Of a DNA stretch of 64,000 bases, positions 13,764 through 59,984 are shown in pieces (within the stretch, counting starts at the first letter, position 1; the number at the start of each line of letters is the position of its first letter). The stretch comes from Streptomyces sp. DI166 (GTDB lineage Bacteria; Actinomycetota; Actinomycetes; Streptomycetales; Streptomycetaceae): contig NZ_FLSP01000003.1 of assembly GCF_900091315.1 (NCBI RefSeq), forward strand, positions 62,001 to 126,000. The letters are read 5' to 3'. The notes beneath the pieces were generated by a model. The model was not told where the DNA came from and made no database searches. It was given only the letters and a program-made list of their open reading frames with translations. The position numbers and the translations under genes are program-made.

Positions 13764-14453
13764 TCAGCGAGATCCCTGCAAGGGGGGTGGAGTCGACGGG
13801 GGCGGTGGGACGAAACCACGCGAGGGCATGGGCTGTTCCATGGCCCGCAACTCCCGAAGCCTGCGTACACCACGGACGGCGGATCGGACTACGCAGGTTG
13901 TGAAGACGAGGTTCGCAGCCGCTGCCAGCCAGATCCACAGGGCGACATGGGGGGAGGTGTTGCTCGGCTGCACCTGGCCCTCGGGGTCCACGACGAGGCG
14001 GATGGACTCACCGACGTCAGCGCCGCGACAACCGCCGATCGGTCCTTCGGCGACATCCCCGTCGGGAAGGCGCACTTTGCACGACGATTCACTTCTCGTT
14101 TGGGACGTCTCGACGACCACCAGGTCGACGGGGCGCCCACGTTCGGCCAGGGCCCGGTCCTGCCTGATGAACATCCCGAACACAACAAGCGCGAAGGCGG
14201 CGAAAAGGAAGGGTGCCATCAGCCACAGCCGCTGGTCCGTGTTCACGGCGACAAACCACAGCAGTCCGAGCGTGAGCACGATGCCGGGCAAGACCAGCCA
14301 CAGACTGATCACCGCAGACATCATGGCTCCCACCAGGAAGGCGAATGCCCCGGACAGGACGTAGAGCCTGCGGGGAGGCATGCCCAGCTCCAGCCACGCC
14401 AACCAGGCAGGCGGGCGGGTGGTGTCGATGCCTCGTCGCCGTCTCACTTCCAT
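13764..14453 (-). CDS. DUF3592-like membrane protein, last gene of cassette A
   Basis: A 229-aa protein with two closely spaced transmembrane pairs: residues about 28-70 and 78-100 near the N-terminus and another at 172-195, with an extracytoplasmic domain between them (VDLVVVETSQTRSESSCKVRLPDGD..GESIRLVVDPEGQV). This strand pattern resembles DUF3592 and recurs in the protein at 35149, the last gene of cassette B (PVPGPEMRMTSDAYDVGE, VLTVIEDPEAE). The C-terminus is proline-rich. The ATG at 14453 overlaps the end of the preceding gene by ten bases. It closes the operon that begins at 18485. It converges on the acyl-CoA ligase with only 20 bases between. Confidence 0.75.
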   Translation of the reverse strand: MEVRRRRGIDTTRPPAWLAWLELGMPPRRLYVLSGAFAFLVGAMMSAVISLWLVLPGIVLTLGLLWFVAVNTDQRLWLMAPFLFAAFALVVFGMFIRQDRALAERGRPVDLVVVETSQTRSESSCKVRLPDGDVAEGPIGGCRGADVGESIRLVVDPEGQVQPSNTSPHVALWIWLAAAANLVFTTCVVRSAVRGVRRLRELRAMEQPMPSRGFVPPPPSTPPPLQGSR

Positions 14454-15166
14454 GGCTGAACCACCTCGTCCGAGTGTTCGTCGGCTGCTCCGTAGGGCTG
14501 GACTGTTGCCTTTCCGCAGATCACGGCTACCAGGCTGGCCATTGACACTACCTGTTCCGGATCCAGGCAGCTGCCGACCACCAGCAGCGCGGGACCACCA
14601 CTGGCGGGGCAGCTCAGGGCGGCAGCCATACCAATCCTTGCCGCGTACTGCGCAGGCGGCGCATCCGTGGTGGGAAGCGCGGGGAAGATGTCGACCTGGC
14701 CGTTGGACCGGATGCCAGGCTGGGAGACCAGGCCAAACCCTGGTCCCATGGCGGTTGGGAAGGATTCGAGGTAGACCTGCCTGTCCTCCAACTGCTCGCC
14801 GAAGTAACGCGCCAGAGCCTCGCCGGCGTTGATGTCCGAGGCGCATCGGGGAGCTTCGACCACTCCGGCACAGATGTGCCAGGTGACGGGGCCGTCCTCG
14901 GAGTCAGGCAGAGCGACCAGACCGTAGCTGATCATGCCGTCGTCGAGGAACAGCCTCCGGGCAGCCATGAGCGTTCGGATGATGGACGAGCGGACGTTCT
15001 CATCTTTATGGGCATATACCTGGTTGGCGAGGTCGGAGATTCGCTCATGTGCCGCCTCGTCGTTCTCTCCGTCTTCCAGCAGGTCGAACCAGTCTGTGGG
15101 CACCTGGAGGTGCACTTCTCCCTGCGGTTGACGCCGGGAAATTGTCCGCTCTGTGCTGATATTCAC
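14444..15166 (-). CDS. EspG-sized cytoplasmic protein of cassette A
   Basis: A 240-aa protein without signal peptide or membrane segment. Its N-terminus (LQVPTDWFDLLEDGEND, then a helical stretch) lines up with those of 34442 (FELPPGFLEFDLDEDPEAR) and 54149 (INVPESWWEFDVRPESRD), each likewise placed beside a large WXG-domain protein. I see no named domain. By size, solubility and constant position next to WXG-type substrates, a secretion chaperone comparable to mycobacterial EspG is a reasonable guess, but I see no sequence proof. The GTG start overlaps the stop of the preceding gene (GTGA), indicating coupled translation. Confidence 0.7.
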   Translation of the reverse strand: MNISTERTISRRQPQGEVHLQVPTDWFDLLEDGENDEAAHERISDLANQVYAHKDENVRSSIIRTLMAARRLFLDDGMISYGLVALPDSEDGPVTWHICAGVVEAPRCASDINAGEALARYFGEQLEDRQVYLESFPTAMGPGFGLVSQPGIRSNGQVDIFPALPTTDAPPAQYAARIGMAAALSCPASGGPALLVVGSCLDPEQVVSMASLVAVICGKATVQPYGAADEHSDEVVQPWK

Positions 15167-16443
15167 GACGCCTCCGCCCCTTCCGCCGCCTTCTTCAATG
15201 CCCAGGGGTTGAGCTCATCCGGCCAGTGGTCCTTCCCTGATCCCGAAGTCTGATCACCGGGGATCTGGTGCTTGATGGCTTCGTACGTGATCTTGGCCGC
15301 GCCCCCTGGCCCCTGCGCCACCGCGTTCGCGCCCCAGTTACCGGCGAACTGGATCGTCTTTCCCGCCAACTCGGCACCACCCACCAACCTGCCGGGCTGG
15401 GTCAGTACCGACTTGAAGAGCCCCGCAGCAGGTGCCCCCATGCGGGCAAGTGCCTTACCTGCGGCGAAAGCACCTCCGCCCAGGGCCAGTCCGGCAGCAT
15501 CGACCAGCACGGTCGGTGAGGTAAGTGCCTGCGCGAAGCTTCCGGTCTCTCCTACGGCCTGAAGATAGTGAGCTGCCAGTCCGATACCCGCCAGTGCCAG
15601 GCTCAGGGCGGCCAATCCCGGAAAGGCCAGGGACAGCAGGCCGGTGATCGCGCTGAGTGTGCCTGCGATGTTTCCGATGAAGGCGAAGAGCCAGGAGTAC
15701 TCCTTCAGAAGTTCCTTGAGCCCGTCGAGAAGCATGTCGCTGACCGCTTCGAGCGCCTTGAGAGCGGCCCCGATGCCGTCTGCCAATTTGTCCCAGAAGC
15801 CCGGCTCGTTCGGCGCGATGTCCATCGCGTGCTTGAGCCGGTCGGCGACGGCCTCGCCCTCTTCGACGTAACGTTTCCTCAGGCGCTCCGCCCGGCCGCG
15901 TATCTCCTCCAGGTCGGCGTTGGCCGAGTGCAGTGACTTCTCCTTGCCGCTGCGCTTCTCCTCCAGCCGTTCCCGCTTCGCCTTCTCCTCGTGGGACTGG
16001 TCCCGCAGTTGGTCCGCGAAGCCCGGCTTCGGCGGCATCCGGTCGAGTTCCCGCTGAAGACCGGCCGCCTTGTCCTTGGCGTCCTGGGCCTCGGACTCCA
16101 GCCGGTCGGCGATCGCCTGCTGGTCGGCCATGTAGCGTGCCCAGTCCTCCAAGGCCTGGGCCGCGTCCGAGAAGGAGTCCCGCGCGTCGTTGACCTTGGG
16201 CCGGAAGTCGTCGTGGAACTGCTCGCGGAACGCTTCGGCGGCCTTGCCCTTCCACTCTCCGCGTCCGGTGCCATTGAGGACGTCAGCGATGTCCCGGAGT
16301 GCCCGTGCTGTACGGCGGACGATCGCTGCCACATGCGTGGCGTCCTTCTTGTTGCCGGGGCACGGGCAAAAGCCGATCGCGGGGAAGCGGGCGTCGGCGG
16401 CCGGGTCCGGCAGGAGCCAGGTCGGCTGACCGTAGTCAGTCAC
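15163..16443 (-). CDS. Large WXG-domain protein, putative type VII substrate (cassette A)
   Basis: A 426-aa protein. Residues 1-130 carry the start FPAIGFCPCPGN, a long helix and the motif GEWKGKAAEAFREQF, the WXG turn of ESX-type helical hairpins; a coiled-coil-rich part (about 110-225) follows, with DIAPNEPGFWDKLADGI at its end. The C-terminal half holds a hydrophobic hairpin (about 265-330) and Ala/Gly-rich stretches. The same order is seen in 33117 with clear similarity, and the N-terminal part also heads the Rhs toxin at 54937. It ends without a recognisable toxin domain. The GTG overlaps the stop of the WXG100-like gene (GTGA). Substrate or structural partner of a type VII system is likely; pore formation is possible. 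Confidence 0.8.
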   Translation of the reverse strand: MTDYGQPTWLLPDPAADARFPAIGFCPCPGNKKDATHVAAIVRRTARALRDIADVLNGTGRGEWKGKAAEAFREQFHDDFRPKVNDARDSFSDAAQALEDWARYMADQQAIADRLESEAQDAKDKAAGLQRELDRMPPKPGFADQLRDQSHEEKAKRERLEEKRSGKEKSLHSANADLEEIRGRAERLRKRYVEEGEAVADRLKHAMDIAPNEPGFWDKLADGIGAALKALEAVSDMLLDGLKELLKEYSWLFAFIGNIAGTLSAITGLLSLAFPGLAALSLALAGIGLAAHYLQAVGETGSFAQALTSPTVLVDAAGLALGGGAFAAGKALARMGAPAAGLFKSVLTQPGRLVGGAELAGKTIQFAGNWGANAVAQGPGGAAKITYEAIKHQIPGDQTSGSGKDHWPDELNPWALKKAAEGAEAS

Positions 16444-16751
16444 TTCTTCCCGCCCTTCGGGGATCGCGCCTTCTCCAGCTCGCGGGCGAACTGCTCGTCC
16501 GTCTCTTCGAAGGTCTTCTTGATCTGTCCCAGAGCCTTCGCGGCGGACTTCGAGAACTTCGACATCTGTTTGATGCCGTAGGACCACTCGTCGCCGAAGT
16601 CATCCATCCGCTGGGCGAGTTTGTAGACACCCATTGATGCGCCGTCGACATCCTCCATTTCACGGCACGGCGCCGCCATCACTTCATGGATGTCCTCGAT
16701 GTCCTTCTGTGTCTTCACCAACATCTCGTAGTCGATGTACAGATCACTCAT
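16440..16751 (-). CDS. WXG100/ESAT-6-like small protein (cassette A)
   Basis: A 103-aa, all-helical protein: MSDLYIDYEMLVKTQ, a first long helix, then a turn near DEWSYG in place of a strict WXG, and a second helix ending in the basic tail ARSPKGGKK. Size and shape fit the ESX family exported by type VII secretion as dimers. The first gene of the WXG part of the operon, it is coupled to the next through GTGA. The start has a GGGGGAACG ribosome site, matched almost base for base ahead of the 38-aa gene at 32998. The partner protein for a heterodimer is not evident. Confidence 0.75.
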   Translation of the reverse strand: MSDLYIDYEMLVKTQKDIEDIHEVMAAPCREMEDVDGASMGVYKLAQRMDDFGDEWSYGIKQMSKFSKSAAKALGQIKKTFEETDEQFARELEKARSPKGGKK

Positions 16752-25913: not shown

Positions 25914-27575
25914 ATGCAGCCGCTCGGAGTCGACGAACCCACCGTGGTGGGGCCGTACCGGCTGCTCGGCCGGCTCGGCTCCGGCGGTATGGGCCGGGTC
26001 TACCTGGGGCGCAGCGCCGGGGGCCGCACGGTCGCCGTCAAGATCGTGCACCCGCACTTCGCGCTGGACGAGGAGTTCCGGGCCCGCTTCCGCCGCGAGG
26101 TGGAGGCGGCGCGCCGGGTGGGCGGCGCCTGGACGGCGCCCGTGCTGGACGCGGACCCGGAGGCGTCGGTGCCGTGGGTGGCCACGGCGTACGCGGCCGG
26201 CCCGTCCCTGACCACGGCGGTCACCGACGCGGGCGCGCTGCCCGCGCACACCGTACGGGTCCTCGGCGCCGGTCTCGCCGAGGCGCTGTCGGCCGTGCAC
26301 GGGCTGGGCCTGGTGCACCGGGACGTGAAGCCCTCCAACGTCCTGCTCACCCTCGACGGACCGCTGCTGATCGACTTCGGCATCGCGCGGGCGACGGACG
26401 GCACAGCGTCCCTGACCTCCACCGGCGTCTCCATCGGCTCGCCCGGCTATATGTCCCCCGAGCAGATCCTCGGCAAGGGCGTCACCGGCGCGGCCGACGT
26501 CTTCTCCCTGGGCGCGGTCCTGGCGTACGCGGGGACCGGGGCGCAGCCCTTCCCCGGCGACTCCTCGGCGGCGCTGCTGTACAAGGTCGTGCACGAGGAG
26601 CCCGAGCTGGGCGCGCTGGACGGGGAGCTGCGGGAGGTCGTGGAGGCCTGCCTGAGCAAGACGCCCGCCGACCGGCCCACCCCCGCCGAGCTGGCCCGGC
26701 GGCTCGCCCCGAACGGCGCGGCGACCCTGGTGGCCACGGGATGGCTGCCGGGGCCGCTGGTGGAGCGGGTGAGCCGCAGCGCCGTGGAGGTGCTGAACCT
26801 GGAGGCGACGGGCGCGGACCAGGGGTCGGGGGTGGTGGGGTTCAGCAGTCCGTCGGTCGCGGCCACGGGCGGTACCGGGGTCGTGGGCCAGTTCGGGCCG
26901 CCGCCGGTCATGACTCCGCCGCCGGTCATGACTCCGCCGCCCGCCGTGACTCCGCCGCCCGCCGTGTCCGTGCCCGAGCAGGAGCGGCGCCGTACGCCGG
27001 GCAAGCTGTCGGTGTCGGTCGCGGCGGCCTCGACGCCGGGTGCCGGCGGCCGGGGGCGCCGGATGAGCTGCACGGTGGCGCTGGCGGTGGCCGGGGCGCT
27101 GGCCGCCGTCACGGTGGGGTCGGTGTTCGTGTTCGACCTGCTGCCCAAGGACGCCGACGACTCCGCGGCGGGCGCCGAGCCGTCGCACTCGGAGGCCCCG
27201 AGCGCCACGGACGCCCCCGCGGGCGGCCCCCTGTCGGCCTACCTGGGCACCTGGGAGGGCCAGGCCACGGCCCTCAACGGCAAACTCCCGATCGGCACCT
27301 TCCGCCTCACCGTCAAGGAAGCGGAGCAGGGCGGGAAACTCGGCACCCTGCGCCAGACGGACGCCATCGGCAACGTCTGCGACGACATCCTCACCCTGAA
27401 GTCGGTGACCGCCAAGAAGCTCGTGGCCAGCTCGACGGGCGCCCCCACCAACCACGGCGGCTGCAACCCGGCGACCACGACGGTCACCCTCACCCCGGTG
27501 GGCGACGACCTCGACTACGCCAACGACAGCCCGGAGTCGGGCAACCCGACGGCCCGGCTGTCGAAGGTGGAGTAG
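25914..27575 (+). CDS. Membrane Ser/Thr protein kinase (PASTA-less PknB type)
   Basis: A 553-aa kinase. The N-terminal domain has GRLGSGGMGRVYLG, Lys in VAVKIVHP near residue 41, HRDVKPSN near 134 and DFGIA near 153, so all catalytic residues are present. A Pro-rich linker with four repeats of PPPVMT or PPPAVT type (about 325-350) leads to one transmembrane helix (about 384-409) and an extracellular domain of some 130 residues with GTWEGQATALNG and two cysteines. The strong GGGGGAGGGG ribosome site fixes the start. It converges on the EccC-type gene, so the kinase may sense envelope signals for that system; this is inference. Confidence 0.93.
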   Translation: MQPLGVDEPTVVGPYRLLGRLGSGGMGRVYLGRSAGGRTVAVKIVHPHFALDEEFRARFRREVEAARRVGGAWTAPVLDADPEASVPWVATAYAAGPSLTTAVTDAGALPAHTVRVLGAGLAEALSAVHGLGLVHRDVKPSNVLLTLDGPLLIDFGIARATDGTASLTSTGVSIGSPGYMSPEQILGKGVTGAADVFSLGAVLAYAGTGAQPFPGDSSAALLYKVVHEEPELGALDGELREVVEACLSKTPADRPTPAELARRLAPNGAATLVATGWLPGPLVERVSRSAVEVLNLEATGADQGSGVVGFSSPSVAATGGTGVVGQFGPPPVMTPPPVMTPPPAVTPPPAVSVPEQERRRTPGKLSVSVAAASTPGAGGRGRRMSCTVALAVAGALAAVTVGSVFVFDLLPKDADDSAAGAEPSHSEAPSATDAPAGGPLSAYLGTWEGQATALNGKLPIGTFRLTVKEAEQGGKLGTLRQTDAIGNVCDDILTLKSVTAKKLVASSTGAPTNHGGCNPATTTVTLTPVGDDLDYANDSPESGNPTARLSKVE

Positions 27576-27603: not shown

Positions 27604-30600
27604 TCAGCCCGGCACCACAACCGTCCGCAGCTCCCCGTCGCCCAGGTGCAGCATGCCCTTGCCGGGGACGGCCTGGCCGCCCACCATGCTGCGGTTGAGG
27701 CGGACGCCGATGAGGTCGCCGCTGGAGGACTCCTGCGGCGAGAGGAGGATGCCGCGGCGGGCCTTCTTGGCGTCGACCTGCCAGCCGGAGAAGCCGCTGC
27801 ACACGTCCTCCTCGTCACCGGCGATGACGAGGGCCAGACCGCGCTCCGCGCCACGCGAGACGATCTTCTTCATCTGGCTCTCGGCGTCGCAGTCCTCCAG
27901 GATCTCGCCGTCGTCGACGAGCACGACGACCGGGTTCTCGACCGACGGCTCGGCGTCGTCGATCAGCTCCTCGAACTCGTCCTCGTCGATGTCGTCGCTG
28001 GTGAAGACCTTCAGTACGCCTTCCACGCCGTCGAGTTGGCGGACCGGCGACTGGCGCGGCGCGGCGACGACCAGGCGCACGCCCTGCTTCAGGAAGGACT
28101 GCGCGAAGTTCATCAGCACCGTCGAACGGCCCGACTTCGCCGGACCCGCGATCACGAACGACGGCACACCCTGCGCGAGGTCGGGGCCGAAGCCGACGAT
28201 CTCGTCGCCGCCGATACCGGCCAGCGCGTACAGCCTGGAGCGCGAGACCTCCGGGTCGCGCAGCTCCCACGCCTCGTCGAAGGAGATCCGGCTGGGCAGG
28301 CTGTCGACCCGGAACGGCCGCTTGGCGCGCGGGACTTCGGCGTCGCGCGCGGTGGCCGCCTCCCCGATCGCGGCCAGTGCAGCGGCCTGACCCTGACCGG
28401 TGGTGTCCTCGGCGAGCAGCGCGAACTGCGTCTCCGTACCGGCCTCGTTCTTGAAGCCACGGCCCGGCGGGATCTCCTCCGGCACCTTGCGCGCGGGGAT
28501 GCCGAGCATGGAGAAGTCGCTGCGGTCCGACAGTCGCAGACCGTACTTGTCCTCGGTGAGCGTGGCGATCCGGCCCACCAGCAGGGTCCGGTCACCGGTC
28601 AGCACCAGGTGGATGCCGAGGCTCGCGCCCTCCCGCATCATCGTCTGCAGCTCGTCCGTCAGCGCGCCGTGGTCCACCTCGCCGAGGGTGGGCACCCAGC
28701 CCTCCCACCGGTCCAGCAGGACCACGATGTGAGGCAGCCGCTCGTCCTCGGACACCGCGGCCCGCTGCTCGCCGATGTCCGCGAACCCCTTGTCGGAGAG
28801 CAGGTTCTGGCGGCGGTCCATCTCGCCCTTGAGCCGGTTGATCAGCCGCACCACCCGCTCGGTCTGGTTACGGCCGACGACCGCGCCGACGTGCGGCAGC
28901 CGGGTCAGCGCGTTCAGCGCGCCGTTGCCGCAGTCGATGCCGTACATGTGCACATCGGCGGTGGAGTGCGTACGGGCCAGCGAACCGGCGATCGTACGCA
29001 GCACCTGCGAGCGTCCGCTGCGCGGGGCGCCGCCGATCATGAGGTGGCCGAAGCTCTCGAAGTCGATCGTCACCGGGCGGCGGGACTGGAGCGCGGGCAG
29101 GTCCTCGATGCCGTAGGCCACGGGCGCCAACCTGCCCGGCGCCGGGCTGAATTCGGGCTCGGGGATCTCGTCGAGCAGCAACTGCTCGTCCAGCGCGGGC
29201 AGCCACGGGCTGTGCTGCGGCGGGATGCCGAGCGACCGGTTGGCGTCCCGGATGGTGTCCACCAGCACCTTGAGGTCGGTGATCTCCTCGTCCTCGCGCG
29301 ACTCGGCCTTCGGCTTGGTCAGCGCGGCCCGACCCAGGTCCTCCCAGGCCAGCGGCCCGACCCAGGGCTTGAGGACGGCGGGGTCCGCGGCGCCGGGCCG
29401 GCGGCCACCCACGCGGCCGGACTGGAACGGCACCAGCGAGGCGTGCCCGAGCCGTACGTACGCCCGGCCCGGTGTGCTCTTGGAGATGTGCCCGGCCTCG
29501 GGGGAGTCGATGACGTCCGACGACTCGCCGCCGTCGGTCACGCGCAGCGCGATCCGCAGGTTGGTGTTGGCGCGGATCTCCGGGGAGACCACACCCGAGG
29601 GCCGCTGCGTGGCGAGCAGCAGGTGGATGCCGAGGGAACGGCCTCGCTGGGCGATGTTGACCAGACCCGTCACGAAGTCCGGCAGATCGCGCACCATCGA
29701 GGCGAACTCGTCGATGACGATGAGGAGTCGAGGCACCGGCTGGTGGGACGGGTCGCGGCGCACCAGGTCCTGGTAGTCCTCGATGTCCTTGGCGTCGGCG
29801 GCGGCCAGGATGTGCTCGCGGCGGTGCAGCTCGGCGCCCAGCGACTCCAGCGCGCGCTCCACGAGGTGCGCGTCGAGGTCGGTCACCATGCCGACGGTGT
29901 GCGGGAGATGGACACAGTCCTTGAACGCCGCGCCACCCTTGTAGTCGACGAGCACGAAGGTCATGTTCTCCGGCGTGTTCGCCACGGCGAGCGCAGCGAC
30001 GATCGTCTGGAGCAGCTCCGACTTACCGGAACCGGTTGTACCGGCGATCAGACCGTGCGGGCCGTCCTTGCGGATGTCGATGCCGAAGGGACCGTCGTAG
30101 GACTCGCCGATGACGGCCAGCGTCGACTGCCCGCCCATCCGCCAGCGCGCCACGATGGCATCGCTGGTCGGCGGCTCCAGTTGCAGCACGTCCAGCAGCC
30201 GGCTGGAACTGGGCAGCGCCGAGTCCTCGGTCTCCCCGCTGATGTCGCGCAGGGAGGAGACGGACCGGGCGAGCCGCAGGCACCAGGACGGCGAGACGAA
30301 GTCGGGCCGCACGTCCTTGCGCCGCTCGGCACCGGCCTCCTCCACCCGCAGCCGCAGCTTGTCGGGCTCCTGGGTGTGGGACGGCTCGGGGGAGGTGTTC
30401 TGGTGCCAGGCCTGGAAGGAGGGGAACCCACCGGGGGCCTGCTCCTGCCGCTGTGCCTGCTGCTGGGGCCGCGGCGCCTCCTCGGCCTTCGGCTCGGCCA
30501 CGACGTACGCCTGGCACTCGCCCGGCAGGAACCGCTCCTCGGCGTCCAGGCAGATCGCGTACATGGAGACGGACGGGCCCTCGCGCAGCAGCCGTACGAC

Positions 30601-32268
30601 ACCCGGCAGGGAACGCAGACGGCGCGAGCCGTCCCAGACGACCACGATGTCGGGGTCGCTGAAGGTGGAACCCTGGCCGCGGTTCTGCTCGGCGGCCTTC
30701 TTGCGGGCGTCCAGGATCTGCGTCAGCTCACCGATCCGGGCGCCCACGGTCTCCGCGTCGGTGCCGATGAGCACGTTCACGTCCTGACCGCCGGACGGCC
30801 TGGCGTGCGGCAGCCACCGCACCCAGTCCCAACTGCCCTGCGCGGACTGCTCGCTGAGAACGTAGAACTGCACATCCATCGGACTGTGCAGCGCGGCGGT
30901 CTGCGCCACGGCCCAACGCCCCATGGCCCGCGCCGAGTCACCGGGCCCGGCCATGCCGATGACCCCGAGCCCGCGCAGGTTCAGGGCGACCGGGGCGTCC
31001 TCGATCTTCCAGGTGACCTCGCGCTTGTGGTCGTCCTGCTCGGGGTCGTCCAGGACGACCTCGGAGGGCAACTGCCCGGTGCCGACCCGCAGCAGCAGAT
31101 GGTCGCGGTCGGTGCGGCGCCGCTCCCAGAGCCGGGTACGGGGCCCGGTGCCCAGCGAGAGCACCGTCGCCGGGTCCGGAATGGCCTGCCGCCGGTCGTT
31201 CCGCTCGGCGACCAGGGCGTCCTGCGCGTCCTGCTCGATCCGGGCCTTCTGCTCCTCGTACTCCTTGACCTGCTTCGCGTGCGACTTACGGCCGTGCTTC
31301 TTGTCGTTGTAGTAGTTCGCGAACAGCAGGATCGGGCTGAGGCCCGCCATGATCAGGTAGTACCAGCGCTGGAAGATCAGCACGGCGACGACGGCACCGA
31401 CGAGCGGCGTCAGCGCCATCAGCCAGGGCAGCGGCCGGGCCTCGTACTCCCGCGGCTTGGACGGCAGCCGGAACCGCGTCTGCCGCTCGGGCGGCCGGAG
31501 CCGGGGCGGCCGGTTGTAGTCGAGGCCGGTGCCGTCCTCGGACCACTTGAGGGCGGCGTTCGGGGGCGCGTAGCGGGTGAGCTCGACGAGGGTGTTGCCG
31601 AGGGCGATCTGGGCGCCGAGGGGCCAGATGTCGGGGTCGGGGGGCGGGGTGTCGCTGTCGCTGCTCTCTTCCTGGCTTTCCTTCTTCCGCCGCTTTTTCT
31701 TCTTCTCTTCTTTCTTGTCCTCTTTGGGGTTGAGGATCTCCTCGATGGGGGTGCCGTCGAGGAAGGCGGCCTCGGTGTCCCCGTGGACCTTGAAGCGGCA
31801 GGTGCCGTCGGTGGAGACGGAGAGGGTCAGGGCGCGGGCGTCGACCTCGGGGTCGTCGATACGGATGTGGCTGGCGGGGCCGCTGCCTATGTCGTAGCGG
31901 CCGACGCCGAGCCGGTGCACGTAACCGGCGACGGGCCCGCCGACGATCCGCAGCTCCACGAGCCCGGTGGGCTCGCCGGGCAGGCACCCGGAGGGGTCCT
32001 GGAGGCTGACGACGGCGCCCTCGCGCAGGGGCGAGTTGGGGATGGTGGCGGACGGGTCGACGGCGTACCCGTCGACGTACAGGAGCGGGGCGTTTCCGCT
32101 GGGTAGCGGGTGCTGCTGCCCGATGGGGATGACCTGAGCGCCACTGTGACCGACCTGTTTGGCCAGTTCCTGGGCGATGTCGCCCATCGTGGACTCGGGA
32201 TCGGCGTCGAGTACGACGTCGGCGGTGCCGCCGCCGAACGGATCGACGACGGTCAGAGTCAGGCGCAC
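27604..32268 (-). CDS. FHA-domain FtsK/SpoIIIE-type ATPase (EccC/EssC-like, type VII secretion)
   Basis: A 1554-aa motor. Residues about 1-90 look like a ubiquitin-like (YukD-type) domain, 105-200 like an FHA domain, and a Lys/Glu-rich stretch follows (EDKKEEKKKKRRKK). Two transmembrane helices lie near 305-345. Then come three FtsK-like modules. The first has a canonical Walker A GTTGSGKSE (about 740) and Walker B VIDEF; the second (GGAPRSGRS, about 1081, with LLDRW) and third (GPAKSGRS, about 1379, with LVDDG) have Arg instead of the P-loop Lys and lack the catalytic Glu. N-terminal FHA domains recall EssC of Firmicutes rather than mycobacterial EccC. GTG with GGGGAGGA upstream sets the start. 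EccB, EccD, EccE and MycP are not in the window. Confidence 0.9.
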   Translation of the reverse strand: MRLTLTVVDPFGGGTADVVLDADPESTMGDIAQELAKQVGHSGAQVIPIGQQHPLPSGNAPLLYVDGYAVDPSATIPNSPLREGAVVSLQDPSGCLPGEPTGLVELRIVGGPVAGYVHRLGVGRYDIGSGPASHIRIDDPEVDARALTLSVSTDGTCRFKVHGDTEAAFLDGTPIEEILNPKEDKKEEKKKKRRKKESQEESSDSDTPPPDPDIWPLGAQIALGNTLVELTRYAPPNAALKWSEDGTGLDYNRPPRLRPPERQTRFRLPSKPREYEARPLPWLMALTPLVGAVVAVLIFQRWYYLIMAGLSPILLFANYYNDKKHGRKSHAKQVKEYEEQKARIEQDAQDALVAERNDRRQAIPDPATVLSLGTGPRTRLWERRRTDRDHLLLRVGTGQLPSEVVLDDPEQDDHKREVTWKIEDAPVALNLRGLGVIGMAGPGDSARAMGRWAVAQTAALHSPMDVQFYVLSEQSAQGSWDWVRWLPHARPSGGQDVNVLIGTDAETVGARIGELTQILDARKKAAEQNRGQGSTFSDPDIVVVWDGSRRLRSLPGVVRLLREGPSVSMYAICLDAEERFLPGECQAYVVAEPKAEEAPRPQQQAQRQEQAPGGFPSFQAWHQNTSPEPSHTQEPDKLRLRVEEAGAERRKDVRPDFVSPSWCLRLARSVSSLRDISGETEDSALPSSSRLLDVLQLEPPTSDAIVARWRMGGQSTLAVIGESYDGPFGIDIRKDGPHGLIAGTTGSGKSELLQTIVAALAVANTPENMTFVLVDYKGGAAFKDCVHLPHTVGMVTDLDAHLVERALESLGAELHRREHILAAADAKDIEDYQDLVRRDPSHQPVPRLLIVIDEFASMVRDLPDFVTGLVNIAQRGRSLGIHLLLATQRPSGVVSPEIRANTNLRIALRVTDGGESSDVIDSPEAGHISKSTPGRAYVRLGHASLVPFQSGRVGGRRPGAADPAVLKPWVGPLAWEDLGRAALTKPKAESREDEEITDLKVLVDTIRDANRSLGIPPQHSPWLPALDEQLLLDEIPEPEFSPAPGRLAPVAYGIEDLPALQSRRPVTIDFESFGHLMIGGAPRSGRSQVLRTIAGSLARTHSTADVHMYGIDCGNGALNALTRLPHVGAVVGRNQTERVVRLINRLKGEMDRRQNLLSDKGFADIGEQRAAVSEDERLPHIVVLLDRWEGWVPTLGEVDHGALTDELQTMMREGASLGIHLVLTGDRTLLVGRIATLTEDKYGLRLSDRSDFSMLGIPARKVPEEIPPGRGFKNEAGTETQFALLAEDTTGQGQAAALAAIGEAATARDAEVPRAKRPFRVDSLPSRISFDEAWELRDPEVSRSRLYALAGIGGDEIVGFGPDLAQGVPSFVIAGPAKSGRSTVLMNFAQSFLKQGVRLVVAAPRQSPVRQLDGVEGVLKVFTSDDIDEDEFEELIDDAEPSVENPVVVLVDDGEILEDCDAESQMKKIVSRGAERGLALVIAGDEEDVCSGFSGWQVDAKKARRGILLSPQESSSGDLIGVRLNRSMVGGQAVPGKGMLHLGDGELRTVVVPG

Positions 32269-32601
32269 GTCTGTAGTCCTCCCCGCTGCCCCCGTGACCG
32301 CTTCCGCAACGCGGGTCACAGTTCCAGGCGACGATATCTGCTGGGGCGGGAAGGGACACAGGGGGTCGGGTGCGGTGCTTCCCAAAGGCAACGCAGTGCA
32401 CACGAGGTTGTGACGGCTCTACGACGTGTTGTTCACAACGCCGGGATGTGACACCTCTGGCCTCCCCCGTAAGCTGCTGCCTCAAGAGCGGACGATCACA
32501 CCGGCAGTCACACGCGAGTTGACGCCGACCGGTGACTGTCGGACCGCAAACAGGGAGCCACGGGGGTTGGCCCTGCGGCGTTTTGAAGAGGGAGCGGCTT
32601 C
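32269..32601. other. Divergent regulatory region between the EccC gene and cassette B
   Basis: These 333 bases hold no gene. At 32428-32439 lies a near-palindrome GTTGT-TC-ACAAC that could be an operator shared by both directions. TTGACG at 32519 is a possible -35 for cassette B, but no convincing -10 follows at the right distance. Confidence 0.4.
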
Positions 32602-32904
32602 ATGGCCAAGGACCTTGACATCACATATCAGGACATGCGGGACGCGGCCAAGCATGTCGTGAAGGAGAAGGAAAGGCTCCAGGACAAGCTCGACGGCCTC
32701 CGCAAGTACATCGCCAACCTGGTCGAGTCGGGCTATGTGACCAAGAGCTCGTCCAAGGCCTTCGACGAGAACTTCGACGAGTTCGTCAAGGGCTCCAAGG
32801 ACACGCTGGACGGCCTCGACGGCATGGGTGACTACCTGACCATGGCCGCCGACAAGTTCGAGCAGATCGACGAGGAGCTGGCGAAGCAGGCTCGCAGCAA
32901 GTGA
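32602..32904 (+). CDS. WXG100/ESAT-6-like small protein (cassette B)
   Basis: A 100-aa, all-helical protein (MAKDLDITYQDMRDAAKH, first helix to about 43; turn near LVESGYVT; second helix FDENFDEFVKGSKDTLDGL). SGY stands where WXG would be. The end IDEELAKQARSK resembles the ends of the WXG-like proteins at 16440 and 53729. It should be a type VII substrate or scaffold subunit. It is the first gene of cassette B, divergent from the EccC-type ATPase. No ribosome site other than AGGGAGC at a good distance is needed. Confidence 0.78.
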   Translation: MAKDLDITYQDMRDAAKHVVKEKERLQDKLDGLRKYIANLVESGYVTKSSSKAFDENFDEFVKGSKDTLDGLDGMGDYLTMAADKFEQIDEELAKQARSK

Positions 32905-33116: not shown

Positions 33117-34442
33117 ATGGCCGAGGCGAAACTGGCGGACTACCCGGCACTGGGATTCGTGCCGTGCCCGGGAGACCAGACGGTGGCGGAGGACGTGGCC
33201 GCGACCGTACGCAGGACGGCGAAGGCGCTCGTCGAGATCTGCCACGTCCTGCACGGGACCGGTGTCGGCGACTGGAAGGGCAAGGCGGCGGAGGTCTTCC
33301 GGGAGAAGTTCGACGACGAGTTCCGCCCGCGGATGGACGAGGCCCGGGACTCCTTCAACGCCGCCGCGACCGCCCTGGAGGACTGGGCGTCGTACATGGA
33401 GCGCAAGCAGCGCGACGCCGTGCGGCTGGAGGCCGAGGCGGCGGCGGTCGACGAGCAGCTGGACAAGGCGCGCGAGAAGTCGGAGAAGCTCAAGAAGGCC
33501 GAGGGCGCCAGGGACGGCGACGCCAAGGACGACGACCACGAGGACAAGGTCAAGGCAGCCGGCAAGTCGGTGAGTGCCAAGGAGGAGGAGCTGGAGGAGC
33601 TTCGCCGCCAGGGCCGCGGTATGGCCAGGGCCTACCGGCAGTACGGCAAGGAGATCGCCGAGCGGCTGCAGAAGGCGATGGACATCGCCCCGAACGAACC
33701 CGGCCTGTGGGACAAGCTGGGCGACGCCATAGCGGACCTCGGCAAGGCGATAGCCGACCTGCCGGGGAAGGTGGGCGAGGTGCTCTCCGACATCGGCGAA
33801 TGGATCAAGAGCCACGCCGACTGGATCACCGTGGCGGCGTCGGTCATCGGTGTGATCGCCATTTTCTGCCCGGTGCTCGCGCCGCTGGCGATCGGGCTGA
33901 GCGCGGTGGCGTTCCTCGCGCATGCCGCGTCCTACGGCATGAGCGGACTGTTTCCGCCCACGGGGGCCAACATCGGCAACTGGCTCACCCTCGGCGGTGA
34001 CGCCCTCGGCATGATCCCCGGTGTCGGCGCCGCTAAGGCAGGCGTCATGGCGGGACTGAAGGCGGGCCGGGGCGCGGGCGGCGTGGTCGCCGGGACCAAG
34101 GTCGGCATCAAGACGGGGTCGACGGTGGCGAAGAACGCCATGAAGGCCGCGGACCCGGTGGCCGCCGTCATCGACAAGCCGATCATGGCCGCCGCCGCCA
34201 AGCTGGGCGTCTCGCGCGGCGCCGCCCTGACGACCACGGAAGGCGTGCAGGCCGCGGCCCAGCTCGCCTGGACGGCGCCCACCGCGATCAACGCCTACGA
34301 GACGAGCACCGGCCGCTACGACGCCGCGACCTGGGGAACCGGCGTGGCCAACGTCGTCACCGGCGCGGGCGGCGGCAAGTTCGGCGGACTGGTGGCCGTG
34401 GGCAGCGCCATCGGCCTGGGTGCCTGGGAGCTGACGGACTGA
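33117..34442 (+). CDS. Large WXG-domain protein, putative type VII substrate (cassette B)
   Basis: A 441-aa paralogue of the protein at 15163: YPALGFVPCPGD, VRRTAKALVEICHVLHGTG, then GDWKGKAAEVFREKF with the WXG turn, a long coiled-coil with Lys/Glu/Asp-rich insert (about 115-185), KAMDIAPNEPGLWDKLGDAI, and a C-terminal half with a hydrophobic hairpin (about 240-285) and Gly/Ala-rich helices. No toxin domain or cleavage site is evident at the C-terminus. The start is two bases after the 38-aa ORF, and its stop is fused to the next start (TGATG). The family is homologous to the N-terminal part of the Rhs toxin at 54937. Function as type VII substrate or membrane-active effector is inferred. 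Confidence 0.82.
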   Translation: MAEAKLADYPALGFVPCPGDQTVAEDVAATVRRTAKALVEICHVLHGTGVGDWKGKAAEVFREKFDDEFRPRMDEARDSFNAAATALEDWASYMERKQRDAVRLEAEAAAVDEQLDKAREKSEKLKKAEGARDGDAKDDDHEDKVKAAGKSVSAKEEELEELRRQGRGMARAYRQYGKEIAERLQKAMDIAPNEPGLWDKLGDAIADLGKAIADLPGKVGEVLSDIGEWIKSHADWITVAASVIGVIAIFCPVLAPLAIGLSAVAFLAHAASYGMSGLFPPTGANIGNWLTLGGDALGMIPGVGAAKAGVMAGLKAGRGAGGVVAGTKVGIKTGSTVAKNAMKAADPVAAVIDKPIMAAAAKLGVSRGAALTTTEGVQAAAQLAWTAPTAINAYETSTGRYDAATWGTGVANVVTGAGGGKFGGLVAVGSAIGLGAWELTD

Positions 34443-35143
34443 TGACGACGATGACCGCGGCGACCGTCGCCCCCCGTGACGTACCGGATCTGTGGTTCGA
34501 ACTGCCGCCGGGTTTCCTGGAGTTCGACCTGGACGAGGACCCCGAGGCGCGCGTGCTTCGGATGACGGATGTGGCCGACGGGCTGTTCGCCGAGGCGACG
34601 GCGGAGCAGAAGCTCAGCATGGTGGTGTCGAGCGAGTACATCCTTCAGAGCATGATCGCGCGAGGCGTCGAGCATGTGTCGAGCTGTCTGCTGCGCATGC
34701 CCGACGACCGGCTCTCCCAGGGCACCTTCTTCGTGATGATCGAGCGCCCGGAGGCCGGACCGCAGAGCCAGGACCGCAAGGGCTCGGCCACGCGTACGGC
34801 CGCCCAGTGGCGCGAGCTGTACCCGGACGCGGAGGTCGGCTTGGTCATGCTGCCGTACGGCATCTCGGCCCTGTGCATCCGCGACGAGGAGCTGCTGATC
34901 CCCGGCGTGCTGTTCGGCCTGGACGACCCGGTGCCGGCCACCGTCCGGCAGGTGCAGTTCAATGTGCCGCTGAAGACTGGGCCGGGGTCCGCCCTGTTCG
35001 TCTTCATGACGCAGGACATCGATCACTGGACCGAGTACCTCGATCTGCTCAGCGGCATCATGAAGTCGGTCTCGGCGGAGGAGCCGGGCGGGGCAGGCAC
35101 GTCCGGGGGCGAGCAGCCGCAGGCCGGTCCAGGAACGGAGTGA
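34442..35143 (+). CDS. EspG-sized cytoplasmic protein of cassette B
   Basis: A 233-aa soluble protein. Opening LWFELPPGFLEFDLDEDPEARVLRM, it shares layout with 14444 and 54149: an acidic hydrophobic strand first, a helical part (AEQKLSMVVSSEYILQSMIARGVEH), then strands and a conserved late helix (YLDLLSGIMKSVS). No catalytic motif is visible. It always sits next to the large WXG-domain gene, so a dedicated chaperone or adaptor is the most likely role. The start is coupled to the preceding stop through TGATG. The last 20 residues are Gly/Glu-rich and probably disordered. Confidence 0.7.
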   Translation: MTTMTAATVAPRDVPDLWFELPPGFLEFDLDEDPEARVLRMTDVADGLFAEATAEQKLSMVVSSEYILQSMIARGVEHVSSCLLRMPDDRLSQGTFFVMIERPEAGPQSQDRKGSATRTAAQWRELYPDAEVGLVMLPYGISALCIRDEELLIPGVLFGLDDPVPATVRQVQFNVPLKTGPGSALFVFMTQDIDHWTEYLDLLSGIMKSVSAEEPGGAGTSGGEQPQAGPGTE

Positions 35144-36646: not shown

Positions 36647-37732
36647 TCACCGGTTGATGGCTTGGATTTCCTGGACGGTGACGGCCTGGTCGTTGCCGAA
36701 GGTGCCGTCGGGGAGGTCACCGCCGGCGCCGCCGGTGCCGGTCCAGGTGATTTCCCAGGTGATGGTGGCCTGGAGTTTGTAGGTGCCGTCGCCGGAGGAG
36801 CGGAGGTATTTGAGGCCGCAGGGCGGAGTTTTGTCGGCTTTGCCTTTGGCGTAGGGCTCGCCGATGGAGCCGTCGTCGTTGATGAGGCATTCGCCGGATG
36901 CGGGGTAGGTCTCGGCGTCCGGGGTGCCGGGTTCGAGCTTGAGGGCGACGGGTTTGGCGGTGGTGGTGGCCTGGATGTTGAAGCCGGGGACGTCGAGGGC
37001 CGCGGTGGCCTGGACCTCGTCGAAGACGGCCTTGTCGAGCCAGGCCCAGGTCGGCAGGTTCACCTTGGTGACGTTCTCGGGGGCGAGGGTGACCTTGGTG
37101 TCGGGCAGTTGCATGTGCTGGTAGGCGAGGGCCGCGAGTATCTCGGGGGTGATGGCTTCCTCGTACTGGGGCGGCGGGGCCTCGCCGTTGTCGACCCAGA
37201 AGGGGAGGTCGTTGCAGGAGCTGCGCTTGAGTACGTCCGGCTCGTTGGGGTTCTCGACGGCGGCCCAGAACATGCCTTCGCCGTCCTTGTCGACGTTGTA
37301 GTCCTTGTAGCCGGGGGTGTCGGTCCAGCCGTACTCGTCCTCGTAGTGCCGCTGGAGCTCGCCGAGCGCGGCGCCGGCGTGGCCGCCCATGCCCGGGGCG
37401 TTCATCTGGCGCTCGATGTCCTTGGACATCTTCTCCTTGAACTCCTTGGCACCGAGGAAGGGGGCGTACCAGCAGGGCGGAGGCGTCCAGTTGGCGTCGG
37501 CGGACTTCACGTTGCCGGTGCCGCCGTTCTTGGCGACGGAGCCGGAGTAGGTGATTCGGGCGGTGGCGTAGATGCCGTTGCCGTCACTGCCGCCCGACTG
37601 CTCGGGGTCGGAGCCGTTGATATCGCCTGGCTGCTCTCCAGCGTAAGCCGGCTCTGCAAGGGCGAGGACGCCCACTGCCAGCGTCAGGGCAGCCACGCCG
37701 GTGCTCAGAGCCGTTCGTCGCGACCTCTTCAC
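36647..37732 (-). CDS. Secreted Cys-rich protein, second copy
   Basis: A 361-aa precursor with a signal peptide (MKRSRRTALSTGVAALTLAVGVLALAEPAYA). The mature chain is almost identical to the copy at 39095 and clearly related to 16771 (CWYAP, LPTWAWLDKA, TTTAKPVALKLEPGT, GECLINDDGSIGEPY, end QEIQAINR). Its signal peptide, however, is unlike that of the 39095 copy. Four conserved cysteines suggest two disulphides. The GTG overlaps the stop of the lipoprotein gene (GTGA), as in the other copies. Extracellular protein of unknown role. Confidence 0.8.
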   Translation of the reverse strand: MKRSRRTALSTGVAALTLAVGVLALAEPAYAGEQPGDINGSDPEQSGGSDGNGIYATARITYSGSVAKNGGTGNVKSADANWTPPPCWYAPFLGAKEFKEKMSKDIERQMNAPGMGGHAGAALGELQRHYEDEYGWTDTPGYKDYNVDKDGEGMFWAAVENPNEPDVLKRSSCNDLPFWVDNGEAPPPQYEEAITPEILAALAYQHMQLPDTKVTLAPENVTKVNLPTWAWLDKAVFDEVQATAALDVPGFNIQATTTAKPVALKLEPGTPDAETYPASGECLINDDGSIGEPYAKGKADKTPPCGLKYLRSSGDGTYKLQATITWEITWTGTGGAGGDLPDGTFGNDQAVTVQEIQAINR

Positions 37733-38400
37733 TGACACTTGGTCGCCTTCGCCTCGATGTACACGTTGGACGCCTGCCACAGGTCGTCTCCGGTAGGGAG
37801 CTTGACCATGATGATCTTGAAGTGGTTGAAGTCCGTGATGCTGGGTTCGGTCTTCAGGACCTTTCCGGACTTGACCTCTTTGGAGTAGAACTTGGTCGAG
37901 TCCACACAGAACGCTACCTCCACCGAGTTCCCGTTCGACGCGGAGCGAGTGGTGGCTTGGTAGTGGCGCCGGGTCCCGGTTGCCGTCCAGTCGCCTTCAA
38001 GCCTGTCCTCGATCTGCGTCTTCCCGTACCGCAGCCCATTGCCGGTGGAGTAGGCGGCCAATGCGGCGTCTTGCGTGGTGCGCTTGTCCACGCCTCGGTA
38101 GATCGCCCGGATGAAGTTCGCCGCGTCCTCCATCGCCGCCGCCTCGTTCGCCTTCTTCGGCTTGTCCCAGTCGAAGACGAGGTTCATGTCCTTGGGCAGG
38201 GACACGTCCACGCCGTCCGGCTTGTCCTCGTCCGGCGCACCCGAGGCCTCCTTCGACGGCTCAGGCTTGGAGGACTGCTGGTCGGCACCGGCGATCTTGT
38301 CGTTGCCGCTGGCGTCGTCGTCCCCGCTGCCGCAGGCAGTCAGCAGGAGTGCCGCTGTCGCGGCGAGTGCGGCGGCGGTGGGCAAAGTGCGGCGCTTCAC
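37729..38400 (-). CDS. Lipoprotein, second copy of pair
   Basis: A 223-aa precursor with a lipobox LTAC after MKRRTLPTAAALAATAALL. The acidic linker through DEDKPDGVDVSLPKD is essentially the same as in 40171, while the C-terminal 130 residues differ clearly from it (e.g. AAYSTGNGLRYGKTQIEDRLEGD here). Two cysteines near positions 170 and 222. It overlaps the secreted-protein gene through GTGA. The 80 bases before its GTG are nearly identical to those before 40842, so the promoter was duplicated with the gene. Confidence 0.78.
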   Translation of the reverse strand: MKRRTLPTAAALAATAALLLTACGSGDDDASGNDKIAGADQQSSKPEPSKEASGAPDEDKPDGVDVSLPKDMNLVFDWDKPKKANEAAAMEDAANFIRAIYRGVDKRTTQDAALAAYSTGNGLRYGKTQIEDRLEGDWTATGTRRHYQATTRSASNGNSVEVAFCVDSTKFYSKEVKSGKVLKTEPSITDFNHFKIIMVKLPTGDDLWQASNVYIEAKATKCQ

Positions 38401-38729
38401 AGTGAACTCCCCGTGAGACTTGAGGTCAGTCAAGAGCACAAACGGTATCGGTGGGGTTCCCGGTTCGCCAGCGCGAACTTCGGCCGCAATCAGGTCAATG
38501 CGGGTGTATGGGGAGGCGGAGAACCGTGCTCTGCGTCTCGATCGTGCTGCAGCGGGAGGCGGGCGGGGCGATGCCGCCGAACTGCCGATTCTCGGGTTGT
38601 GTTGCGGATTCGCCTTCGCCATTGAGGCGCCACCAGGGTCGAGTTGATGCACGGAGGGGGGCGCCGTGTGGTCTTCGTCTCCTCGCCCACCCGTGGACGC
38701 CGACCAGCGGGCGGCGGACGGAGCTCGTA
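38401..38729. other. Gene-free stretch upstream of the second lipoprotein
   Basis: About 330 bases without a supportable gene. The first 80 bases upstream of the lipoprotein start (38401-38480) are near-identical to 40843-40922 and thus form the shared promoter region. The remainder shows no repeat or hairpin that I could identify. Confidence 0.5.
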
Positions 38730-39051: not shown

Positions 39052-39094
39052 CTACCCTCCTCTGTTACCGGGGGGCTCATGCTTCGCGGTGTGA

Positions 39095-40842: not shown

Positions 40843-41101
40843 AGTGAACTCCCCGTGAGACTTGAGGTCAGTCAAGAGCACAAACGGTATCGGTGGGGTT
40901 CCCGGTTCGCCACCGCGAACTAGCCCGATAAGTGGGGCAATTGTGGATGTTCGAAGCGGATGTGCTGGAGCTCGCATGGCTGGAATGCGGGCAATGGGGT
41001 GGTTTTACGATGCTCCGGCAGGCATCAGGTAGACGGATCAGATTTGCCCCGCTCGCCCGAGCCACTGCGCAAACGATGGCCTGGGGCGGGGTGCCGTGCC
41101 T

Positions 41102-54148: not shown

Positions 54149-54796
54149 ATGGCCCGCTACATGGAGGCGCTCACCATTGAGCGCGGCGGCTTCCGGATCA
54201 ACGTTCCGGAGTCGTGGTGGGAGTTCGACGTACGCCCCGAGTCCCGGGACGACTCGATCCGCCGGATGGTGAACGAACGCGTGCAGGCGCACCCGGAGCT
54301 GGCCAAGTACCGCGACGCGTACCTGGACTTCCTGCGCAAGGCGGCGGCGGACGCGTGGAAGTCGGGCGCGCTGTACTGCGGTTGCATGGCGGAGAGCTTC
54401 GGCGGTGACACCCCGATCACGGGCTCGGTGACGGTGTCGCTGGTCTCGGGCCGATCGTCCTCCGGGGAGCCGCTGTCGACGGACCCCGTGGTGATGGCCG
54501 GCCAACTCGCCGTGAAGGAGGCGAAGAAGGAGGGCGACTCCTGGCGGAAGGTGACCACGGTCGACATTCCGGGCGTGGGGCCGGCGGCGCGGACGTACGG
54601 CATCGAGGACATCACGATCCCGGACGACGCGCTGAAGCGGACGGTCCGGGCGGTGCTGATGCAGACGTTCATCCCGGTGCCGGGCCAGGCGGGCAAGGTG
54701 GCGCTGGTGGCCGGAAGCAGCCAGGTGCTGGACCTGGCGGACTCCTTCTTCGACATCTTCGACGCGATCACATCGACGTTCCGCTTCACGGGGTAG
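54149..54796 (+). CDS. EspG-sized cytoplasmic protein (cassette C)
   Basis: A 215-aa soluble protein. The beginning FRINVPESWWEFDVRPESRDDS matches those of 14444 and 34442, and the pattern of an acidic strand, helix (ELAKYRDAYLDFLRKAAADAWK), strands, and the closing helix (VLDLADSFFDIFDAITSTFRF) is kept. It is next to the Rhs gene, 140 bases ahead. Probably a chaperone or adaptor of its N-terminal domain. The last codons are repeated in the DNA just after the stop. Confidence 0.7.
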   Translation: MARYMEALTIERGGFRINVPESWWEFDVRPESRDDSIRRMVNERVQAHPELAKYRDAYLDFLRKAAADAWKSGALYCGCMAESFGGDTPITGSVTVSLVSGRSSSGEPLSTDPVVMAGQLAVKEAKKEGDSWRKVTTVDIPGVGPAARTYGIEDITIPDDALKRTVRAVLMQTFIPVPGQAGKVALVAGSSQVLDLADSFFDIFDAITSTFRFTG

Positions 54797-59540: not shown

Positions 59541-59984
59541 ATGGCTCAGACGCACGAGCAGCGATGGTCCGCGGAGACGGATCGGGTGCTGCGCGAGGCC
59601 GGTTGGTACCCGGGCCGAGAGGTGTCCACGGCAGGCTGGGAGGCCACGCTCCGCGAGCACGGCGGTTTCGAGATGCATGAGGCGGCCCGCGCCTTCCTCG
59701 CCGAGTTCGGTGGGCTGGCGAGCGCGGAACGGGGGCCTGGGAAGACGATGGCTCGGATGGGGTTCACCCTCGACCCGACCGTCGCCGAGTGGGACGACGA
59801 GATCTTCGACGTACTGAGTGAGGAAGCCGGAGTCGATCTGTACCCGATCGGGGAGGCCGATCGCCGCAATCTGTACCTGGGTATGGCTCCCAACGGCGCT
59901 GTGTACGTCGGGATGGACAGCGTCTCGTGGCTGGCGGACGCGGGGGACGAGGCGCTGGAGAAGCTGGTTGAGGGAATCCGGTAG
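59541..59984 (+). CDS. SUKH-3 family immunity protein (cognate copy)
   Basis: A 147-aa protein. RWSAETDRVLREAGWYPGREVS, FLAEFGGLASAERGPGKTMARMGFTLDP and LYPIGEADRRNLYLGMAPNGAVYVGMDSV are the SUKH-3 pattern (SMI1/KNR4 superfamily). It starts two bases after the Rhs stop, so it is produced with the toxin and should neutralise the YwqJ-type deaminase. A second close copy is found at 62191. No signal peptide: it acts in the cytoplasm. Confidence 0.9.
   Translation: MAQTHEQRWSAETDRVLREAGWYPGREVSTAGWEATLREHGGFEMHEAARAFLAEFGGLASAERGPGKTMARMGFTLDPTVAEWDDEIFDVLSEEAGVDLYPIGEADRRNLYLGMAPNGAVYVGMDSVSWLADAGDEALEKLVEGIR

What the first reader, a model, noticed from the sequence alone, without database searches (positions are those of the whole stretch)
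27604..32268. EssC-like FHA-bearing EccC motor whose second and third ATPase modules look dead
Only the first FtsK module has a Walker A lysine and a Walker B Asp-Glu. The second (GGAPRSGRS, LLDRW) and third (GPAKSGRS, LVDDG) have Arg for Lys and no catalytic Glu. The N-terminus carries a ubiquitin-like and an FHA domain as in Firmicutes EssC. In mycobacterial-type EccC all three modules usually keep P-loop residues. The motor has no EccB, EccD, EccE or MycP genes near it.
Basis: seen in the sequence. Interest (0 to 1): 0.7.

Follow-up and report, generated by a model that had tools for sequence, protein, structure and literature searches.

The report
Streptomyces stand-alone type VII secretion motor
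This gene encodes the engine of a type VII protein-export machine; its last two ATPase units lack the catalytic residue, as in all known relatives, but the machine itself looks like a widespread, self-contained version in Streptomyces and its kin that none of the papers we could search describes.

Summary
The motifs are real: gene on the minus strand, 27604-32268 or -32403. Module 1 is canonical (GSGKS / DE). Modules 2 and 3 read SGRS with no catalytic Glu. The "dead modules" reading is not special: D2 and D3 lack Glu in every EccC/EssC examined here and are degenerate in the literature, and an Arg P-loop occurs in S. aureus EssC D2. Nor do these modules look decayed: both Arg are fixed (80/80 and 78/79 in 80 named actinobacterial relatives plus this protein), and the P-loop and Walker B Asp are among the few invariant D2/D3 positions. 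Best reading: one engine (D1) plus two conserved modules that bind but do not hydrolyse nucleotide. The more interesting result is the system. The N-terminus is a fused ubiquitin-like domain and one FHA domain whose phosphothreonine residues are lost. The motor forms a clade apart from EccC and EssC. It is linked to WXG100, a small helical partner, T7SS-signal substrates (including an RHS-deaminase toxin with SUKH-3 immunity in this window) and a ~200-aa protein family. It occurs in genomes with no detectable ESX-type EccC, EccB or EccD. It is probably an undescribed T7SS variant near T7SSd.

The parts
27604..32403 (-). Ubl-FHA-EccC motor, 1599 aa from the first GTG; conserved start at 32268 (1554 aa)
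   Evidence: TIGR03928/TIGR03924/TIGR03925 partial matches below cut-off
32008..32268 (-). ubiquitin-like (YukD-type) N-terminal domain, approximate bounds
   Evidence: profile A3 matches ubiquitin folds in PDB at profile positions 18-78; PF08817 in 5 of 48 members
31558..31962 (-). single FHA domain with phosphothreonine-contact residues not conserved, approximate bounds
   Evidence: profile A3 vs FHA structures; PF16697 in 42 of 48 and PF00498 in 2 of 48 members; residue counts
31306..31440 (-). transmembrane region (probably two segments)
   Evidence: hydrophobic stretch in translation; same place in relatives
29374..30156 (-). FtsK module 1 (D1), Walker A GTTGSGKS, Walker B IVIDEF: the only module with a full catalytic set
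28399..29136 (-). FtsK module 2 (D2), Walker A GAPRSGRS (29008-29031), Walker B LLDRW (28705-28719)
27610..28221 (-). FtsK module 3 (D3), Walker A GPAKSGRS (28123-28146), Walker B LVDDG (27907-27921)
32602..32904 (+). WXG100 protein (EsxA/TsxA-like), divergent partner of the motor
   Evidence: PF06013 1e-16; TIGR03930; found near the motor in 65 of 80 named loci
33117..34442 (+). candidate substrate 1 with T7SS_signal domain (441 aa)
   Evidence: PF21725; family near the motor in 63 of 80 named loci
34442..35143 (+). member of the ~200-230 aa c3/c8/c17 family, coupled to substrate 1; candidate chaperone or adaptor
   Evidence: profile comparisons; position after the substrate gene in many loci; no Pfam or PDB match
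25914..27575 (+). Ser/Thr protein kinase convergent with the motor; possible but unproven partner
   Evidence: PF00069; kinase family beside the motor in 39 of 80 named loci
15163..16587 (-). candidate substrate 2 (T7SS_signal/WXG100 N-terminus)
   Evidence: PF21725, PF06013
16440..16751 (-). small helical partner (c6, Lap-like) of substrate 2
   Evidence: profile match to c6; c6 profile related to WXG100 profile
14444..15166 (-). ~240 aa gene after substrate 2; by position and N-terminal pattern a possible member of the c3-type family, not detected by the family profiles
   Evidence: N-terminal pattern; no Pfam match; not among the window hits
54149..54796 (+). c3-family protein upstream of the RHS toxin
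   Evidence: c3 profile, 223 bits
54937..59538 (+). candidate substrate 3: T7SS_signal/WXG100 N-terminus, RHS repeats, YwqJ-like deaminase C-terminus
   Evidence: WXG100 hit
59586..59984 (+). SUKH-3 immunity protein, presumably for the RHS-deaminase
   Evidence: PF14433 4e-27

Best explanation
The gene encodes the motor of a self-contained type VII secretion system. D1 is the only ATP-hydrolysing module. D2 and D3 keep an intact P-loop with Arg in place of Lys, and the Walker B Asp, so they most likely bind nucleotide and act as regulatory or substrate-docking modules rather than engines. The N-terminus carries a fused ubiquitin-like domain (perhaps doing in cis what EsaB/YukD or the EccD ubiquitin-like domain does in other T7SSs) and one FHA domain that has lost its phosphothreonine contacts and therefore probably serves as a docking platform. 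Substrates are the WXG100 protein and T7SS-signal proteins encoded beside the motor, including polymorphic RHS toxins, delivered with small helical partners and a ~200 aa accessory protein. No EccB/EccD-type channel is encoded with it. Shown by sequence: domain order, motifs, conservation, linkage, and presence in genomes without detectable ESX core genes. Inferred: hexamer, nucleotide binding without hydrolysis, secretion of these substrates, role of the Ubl and FHA domains.
For: D1 K and E are 81/81; D2 Arg 80/80 and D3 Arg 78/79 of rows with a residue, in 80 named relatives plus the window. In 41 class-wide sequences only 17 of 236 D2 columns and 12 of 204 D3 columns are invariant, and these include G1125, R1128, G1130, R1131, D1231, G1420, R1426, S1427 and D1497, so the pocket is under strong constraint. 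Missing Glu is shared by all canonical EccC and EssC-type proteins aligned. Literature: D1 active, D2/D3 degenerate and proposed regulatory (PMC11154593); ATP found intact in GtEssC D2, and Walker motifs of SaEssC D2 (with Arg) needed for assembly and secretion (PMC9436818). Linkage: WXG100 in 65, T7SS-signal substrate in 63, small partner in 57 and c3 family in 56 of 80 named loci; compact co-directional operon on Curtobacterium plasmid pTCL; WXG100 next to the motor on Streptomyces plasmids. All three WXG100 hits of the whole genome lie in this window. Autonomy: genomes G010, G011, G024 carry this motor with no canonical EccC, no EccD, no EccB and no YukD hit; G027 likewise for EccC, EccD and YukD. 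No EccB or EccD in any of 120 motor loci. Tree: clade apart from EccC and EssC, support 100/98.
Against: No experiment shows secretion or ATPase activity. No membrane partner conserved across all loci was found, so either the motor alone forms the pore or an unlinked partner exists. Absence of ESX genes rests on profile searches of draft or 93-99% complete genomes. EccE and MycP were not searched genome-wide. The c3 family has no known fold.
Confidence: 0.7

Rival explanations
1. D2 and D3 are simply decaying, functionless ATPase copies.
For: No catalytic Glu and no Lys in either module.
Against: Both Arg, the P-loop glycines and the Walker B Asp are invariant or nearly so in 41 and 81 sequences, the former as low as 36% identical to the window protein, while most D2/D3 columns vary. 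Decay would hit the pocket first. SaEssC D2 with Arg is required for secretion (PMC9436818).
Confidence: 0.08
2. The motor is not autonomous: it plugs into the canonical EccC-EccD cluster elsewhere in the genome (contig C65) and shares its membrane channel.
For: This genome does carry a canonical EccC next to an EccD, a MinD-like protein and a DUF6177 protein.
Against: G010, G011, G024 and G027 carry the FHA motor with no canonical EccC or EccD detected. The genome has no EccB. The motor's cassette also travels on plasmids without ESX core genes beside it.
Confidence: 0.08
3. It is a member of the published T7SSd subtype (Olsenella, Bifidobacterium) rather than a further variant.
For: Actinomycetota, FHA-bearing ATPase, WXG100 protein, RHS toxins, and a Ser/Thr kinase near the motor in 39 of 80 loci; T7SSd has no separate ubiquitin-like protein (PMC11217815), nor do these genomes as far as detected.
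Against: T7SSd FHA domains keep the phosphothreonine consensus; here it is lost. No TsdI-like large protein recurred among the neighbour clusters. The kinase is convergent and missing from many loci. No TsdC sequence was available by name to place on the tree.
Confidence: 0.15
4. It is a DNA translocase or conjugation protein of the FtsK superfamily, not a secretion motor.
For: FtsK domain; relatives on plasmids are annotated only as 'FtsK/SpoIIIE domain-containing protein'.
Against: Three-module EccC/EssC architecture with TIGR03928, TIGR03924 and TIGR03925 matches and recurrent WXG100 linkage.
Confidence: 0.03

Closest known systems
T7SSd / TsdC (Olsenella, Bifidobacterium; PMC11217815)
   Same: Actinomycetota; FHA-bearing three-module ATPase; WXG100 protein; RHS toxins; kinase often near; no separate ubiquitin-like protein.
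   Different: Here the ubiquitin-like domain is fused to the ATPase, FHA phosphothreonine residues are lost, no TsdI-like protein recurs, and a c3-type ~200 aa protein and small helical partner recur with the substrates. Whether TsdC also has a hidden fused Ubl was not testable here.
T7SSb EssC (S. aureus, B. subtilis, Limosilactobacillus)
   Same: FHA at the N-terminus, two TM segments, three FtsK modules, D1 canonical, D2 without Glu (Arg P-loop in S. aureus D2).
   Different: EssC has two FHA domains and a separate YukD/EsaB; its D3 P-loop is lost altogether (Limosilactobacillus EssC); it needs EssA, EssB, EsaA. YukC/EssB is not found in this genome. Separate clade.
T7SSa/ESX EccC (T. curvata 4NH0, M. 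tuberculosis EccC5, streptomycete EccC)
   Same: Three modules with D1 DE and D2/D3 lacking Glu; best PDB match is 4NH0.
   Different: Canonical EccC keeps Lys in D2 and D3 (all aligned here), has no Ubl-FHA N-terminus, and works with EccB, EccD, EccE, MycP. Separate clade.
Mobile T7SS with YueA-like ATPase in which only the middle module is active (footnote in PMC3482391)
   Same: WXG proteins with a three-module ATPase of which one module is active.
   Different: There the middle module, here the first, is the active one.

Membership tests
type VII secretion system (broad) | EccC/EssC-type ATPase with TM segments and three FtsK modules | tested here: met
type VII secretion system (broad) | genetically linked WXG100 protein | tested here: met
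   (PF06013), 65 of 80 loci
type VII secretion system (broad) | motor-dependent export of WXG100 substrate | not testable with these tools
   needs a deletion and secretome
T7SSa / ESX | EccB | tested here: not met
   none in genome, search rings in 35 of 41 genomes; none in 120 motor loci
T7SSa / ESX | EccD beside the motor | tested here: not met
   only at C65; none in 120 motor loci; absent from G010, G011, G024, G027
T7SSa / ESX | EccE and MycP | not tested
   not searched genome-wide; none appeared among the neighbours scanned
T7SSa / ESX | motor falls in EccC clade | tested here: not met
T7SSb | EssB/YukC | tested here: not met
   none in genome; control rings in B. subtilis
T7SSb | two N-terminal FHA domains, separate EsaB/YukD | tested here: not met
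   one Ubl plus one FHA; the only YukD hit in the genome lies at the EccD gene of C65
T7SSd | FHA-bearing ATPase plus WXG100 in Actinomycetota | tested here: met
T7SSd | conserved phosphothreonine-binding residues in the FHA | tested here: not met
   Arg and Ser/His positions vary widely; alignment-based, no structure
T7SSd | Ser/Thr kinase TsdD at the locus | tested here: inconclusive
   kinase convergent in window and in 39 of 80 loci, absent from many
T7SSd | TsdI (large, signal peptide, Ig-like) and TsdH | tested here: inconclusive
   no recurrent neighbour cluster of that kind; TsdH too short and featureless to search
T7SSd | groups with TsdC in a tree | not testable with these tools

The most novel reading that the evidence does not exclude
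A further T7SS subtype, beyond the published T7SSa-j: a class-wide actinobacterial system whose motor carries its own ubiquitin-like domain, needs no EccB/EccD-type partner, uses a single hydrolysing module with two Arg-P-loop regulatory modules, and delivers RHS and other polymorphic toxins with a dedicated ~200 aa accessory protein.
Probability: 0.55. Interest if true: 0.65.

Novelty: new variant of a known kind. Interest (0 to 1): 0.5.

Why it matters
If confirmed, this would be one of the simplest T7SSs known: motor, WXG100 protein and substrates, in Streptomyces genomes that lack detectable ESX core genes. It would let one ask directly what the minimal type VII channel is and what D2/D3 do when hydrolysis there is ruled out by sequence. 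It would also give the RHS toxins encoded in Streptomyces a candidate export route.

Tried and rejected
Plus-strand reading of the coordinates: no EccC there. Idea that the c3/c8 family has the PsbP/Mog1/LpqN fold and works like T6SS Eag chaperones: profile comparison with LpqN gave no support (the LpqN set held only 3 usable sequences), no PDB or Pfam match; E. coli DcrB was fetched but not compared. EccB searches (TIGR03919, PF05108) on the own genome alone were uninformative until run on relatives as a positive control. The first EccB blast used the wrong reading frame and was repeated. Curtobacterium 310 aa gene next to the motor as an EccE: no Pfam match.

Full report
What is there. The gene runs on the minus strand, window 27604-32403 (1599 aa from the first GTG; the conserved start lies at 32268). 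The closest named relatives are streptomycetes (Streptomyces cupreus, 96% identical over D1-D2). Profile and PDB matches identify an EccC/EssC-type motor: TIGR03928, TIGR03924 and TIGR03925 match below their cut-offs, and the best solved relative is T. curvata EccC 4NH0.

Are modules 2 and 3 dead? The missing Glu is ordinary. In one alignment of 75 motors, the canonical EccC of this genome, 11 canonical EccCs of relatives and three Bacillota EssC-type proteins also lack it in D2 and D3. Published work on TcEccC, Mtb EccC and EssC says the same and assigns hydrolysis to D1 (PMC11154593; PMC6954902). Arg in the P-loop is also known: S. aureus EssC D2 has Gly1019-Arg1020 and is needed for assembly and secretion (PMC9436818), and Mtb EccC5 D3 reads GRRECGRT. 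What is characteristic is that both modules carry Arg throughout this family: 40 of 40 class-wide relatives, then 80/80 (D2) and 78/79 (D3) among 80 named relatives plus the window. Only 17 of 236 D2 columns and 12 of 204 D3 columns are invariant in 41 sequences, and P-loop and Walker B residues are among them. A module that had lost its role would not keep its pocket while the rest drifts. So 'catalytically inactive but maintained' fits, 'dead' does not.

N-terminus. A profile of residues 46-335 from 48 sequences matches ubiquitin folds at positions 18-78 and FHA domains at 94-189; PF08817 (YukD) hits 5 members, PF00498 (FHA) 2 and PF16697 (an FHA-like family) 42. By alignment with GarA, the Arg, Ser and His positions that contact or support phosphothreonine binding are replaced in this protein and variable in the family. 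This resembles T7SSb EssC, whose FHA domains also lost the site, and contrasts with T7SSd and T7SSe, where it is conserved (PMC11217815). The fused ubiquitin-like domain may stand in for the separate YukD/EsaB or the EccD domain; that is inference.

Surroundings. A WXG100 gene lies divergently at 32602-32904, followed by a T7SS_signal protein (33117-34442) and a 233-aa protein. All three WXG100 matches in the whole genome fall in this window: the gene at 32602, a second substrate at 15163-16587, and a 1533-aa protein at 54937-59538 with T7SS_signal, RHS repeats and a YwqJ-like deaminase, followed by SUKH-3 immunity genes. Across 80 named loci the WXG100 gene is found in 65, the substrate family in 63, a small WXG100-related partner (c6) in 57, and a ~200 aa family (c3) in 56, with relatives c8, c9 and c17 in 25, 27 and 14; a kinase gene is near in 39. 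Several of the misses have short flanks. c3, c8 and c17 are one family by profile comparison, with c9 weaker. On Curtobacterium plasmid pTCL these genes form one co-directional run ending in the motor; Streptomyces plasmids carry WXG100 plus motor.

Independence from ESX. EccB is not found in this genome although the same search rings in 35 of 41 genomes. A canonical EccC with EccD sits on another contig (C65). Genomes G010, G011 and G024 carry the FHA motor but no canonical EccC, EccD, EccB or YukD; G027 the same except that EccB was not searched. No EccB or EccD sequence turned up in 120 motor loci. YukC/EssB is not found in this genome either. A maximum-likelihood tree over D1-D2 separates these motors (60 rows, support 100/98) from EccC and EssC, with the Arg-Arg type mostly in one 41-row subclade (97/99); the label needs five changes on the tree, so it is not of perfectly single origin.

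Relation to known systems. Garrett et al. 2024 define T7SSc-j; T7SSd is the only new one in Actinomycetota (Olsenella, Bifidobacterium), and the main text does not mention Streptomyces. One T7SSd feature tested here is not met (conserved phosphothreonine site), two are inconclusive (kinase, TsdI/TsdH), and placement against TsdC could not be tested. Searches of the open library found no description of this Streptomyces system; subscription papers are not held, so prior description cannot be excluded.

Mechanism, with status. Shown by sequence: domain order, motifs, conservation, linkage, independence from detectable ESX genes. Inferred: hexameric motor driven by D1; D2/D3 bind nucleotide and gate or dock substrates; FHA and Ubl act as docking domains; export of WXG100 and toxin substrates, with the c3 protein as chaperone or adaptor.

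Noticed in passing
54937-63473: RHS protein with T7SS_signal/WXG100 N-terminus and YwqJ-like deaminase C-terminus, followed by a string of immunity-like genes (two SUKH-3, one barstar).
   Followed up: partly
L015 (contig C65), 7022-15205: Canonical EccC with EccD, a MinD-like ATPase and a DUF6177 protein, in a genome with no detectable EccB and no WXG100 outside the window: a second, incomplete-looking ESX-type cluster.
   Followed up: partly
34442-35143, 54149-54796 (and possibly 14444-15166): Fast-diverging ~200-240 aa family with no Pfam or PDB match that accompanies T7SS-signal substrates across Actinomycetes; candidate chaperone or adaptor.
   Followed up: partly
36647-42436: Tandemly repeated genes for a lipoprotein-like and a secreted ~375 aa protein, near-identical copies; related genes recur beside several FHA-motor loci (clusters c10, c11).
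   Followed up: no
47948-53691: Probable Tad-type pilus gene cluster (T2SSE ATPase at 48778-50085).
   Followed up: no
L246 7574-8506: 310 aa protein with an N-terminal hydrophobic segment directly upstream of the motor on Curtobacterium pTCL; no Pfam match; possible membrane partner.
   Followed up: partly
G027 (L022): The genome search flags one in-frame TGA within the matched stretch of the motor gene in this relative.
   Followed up: no
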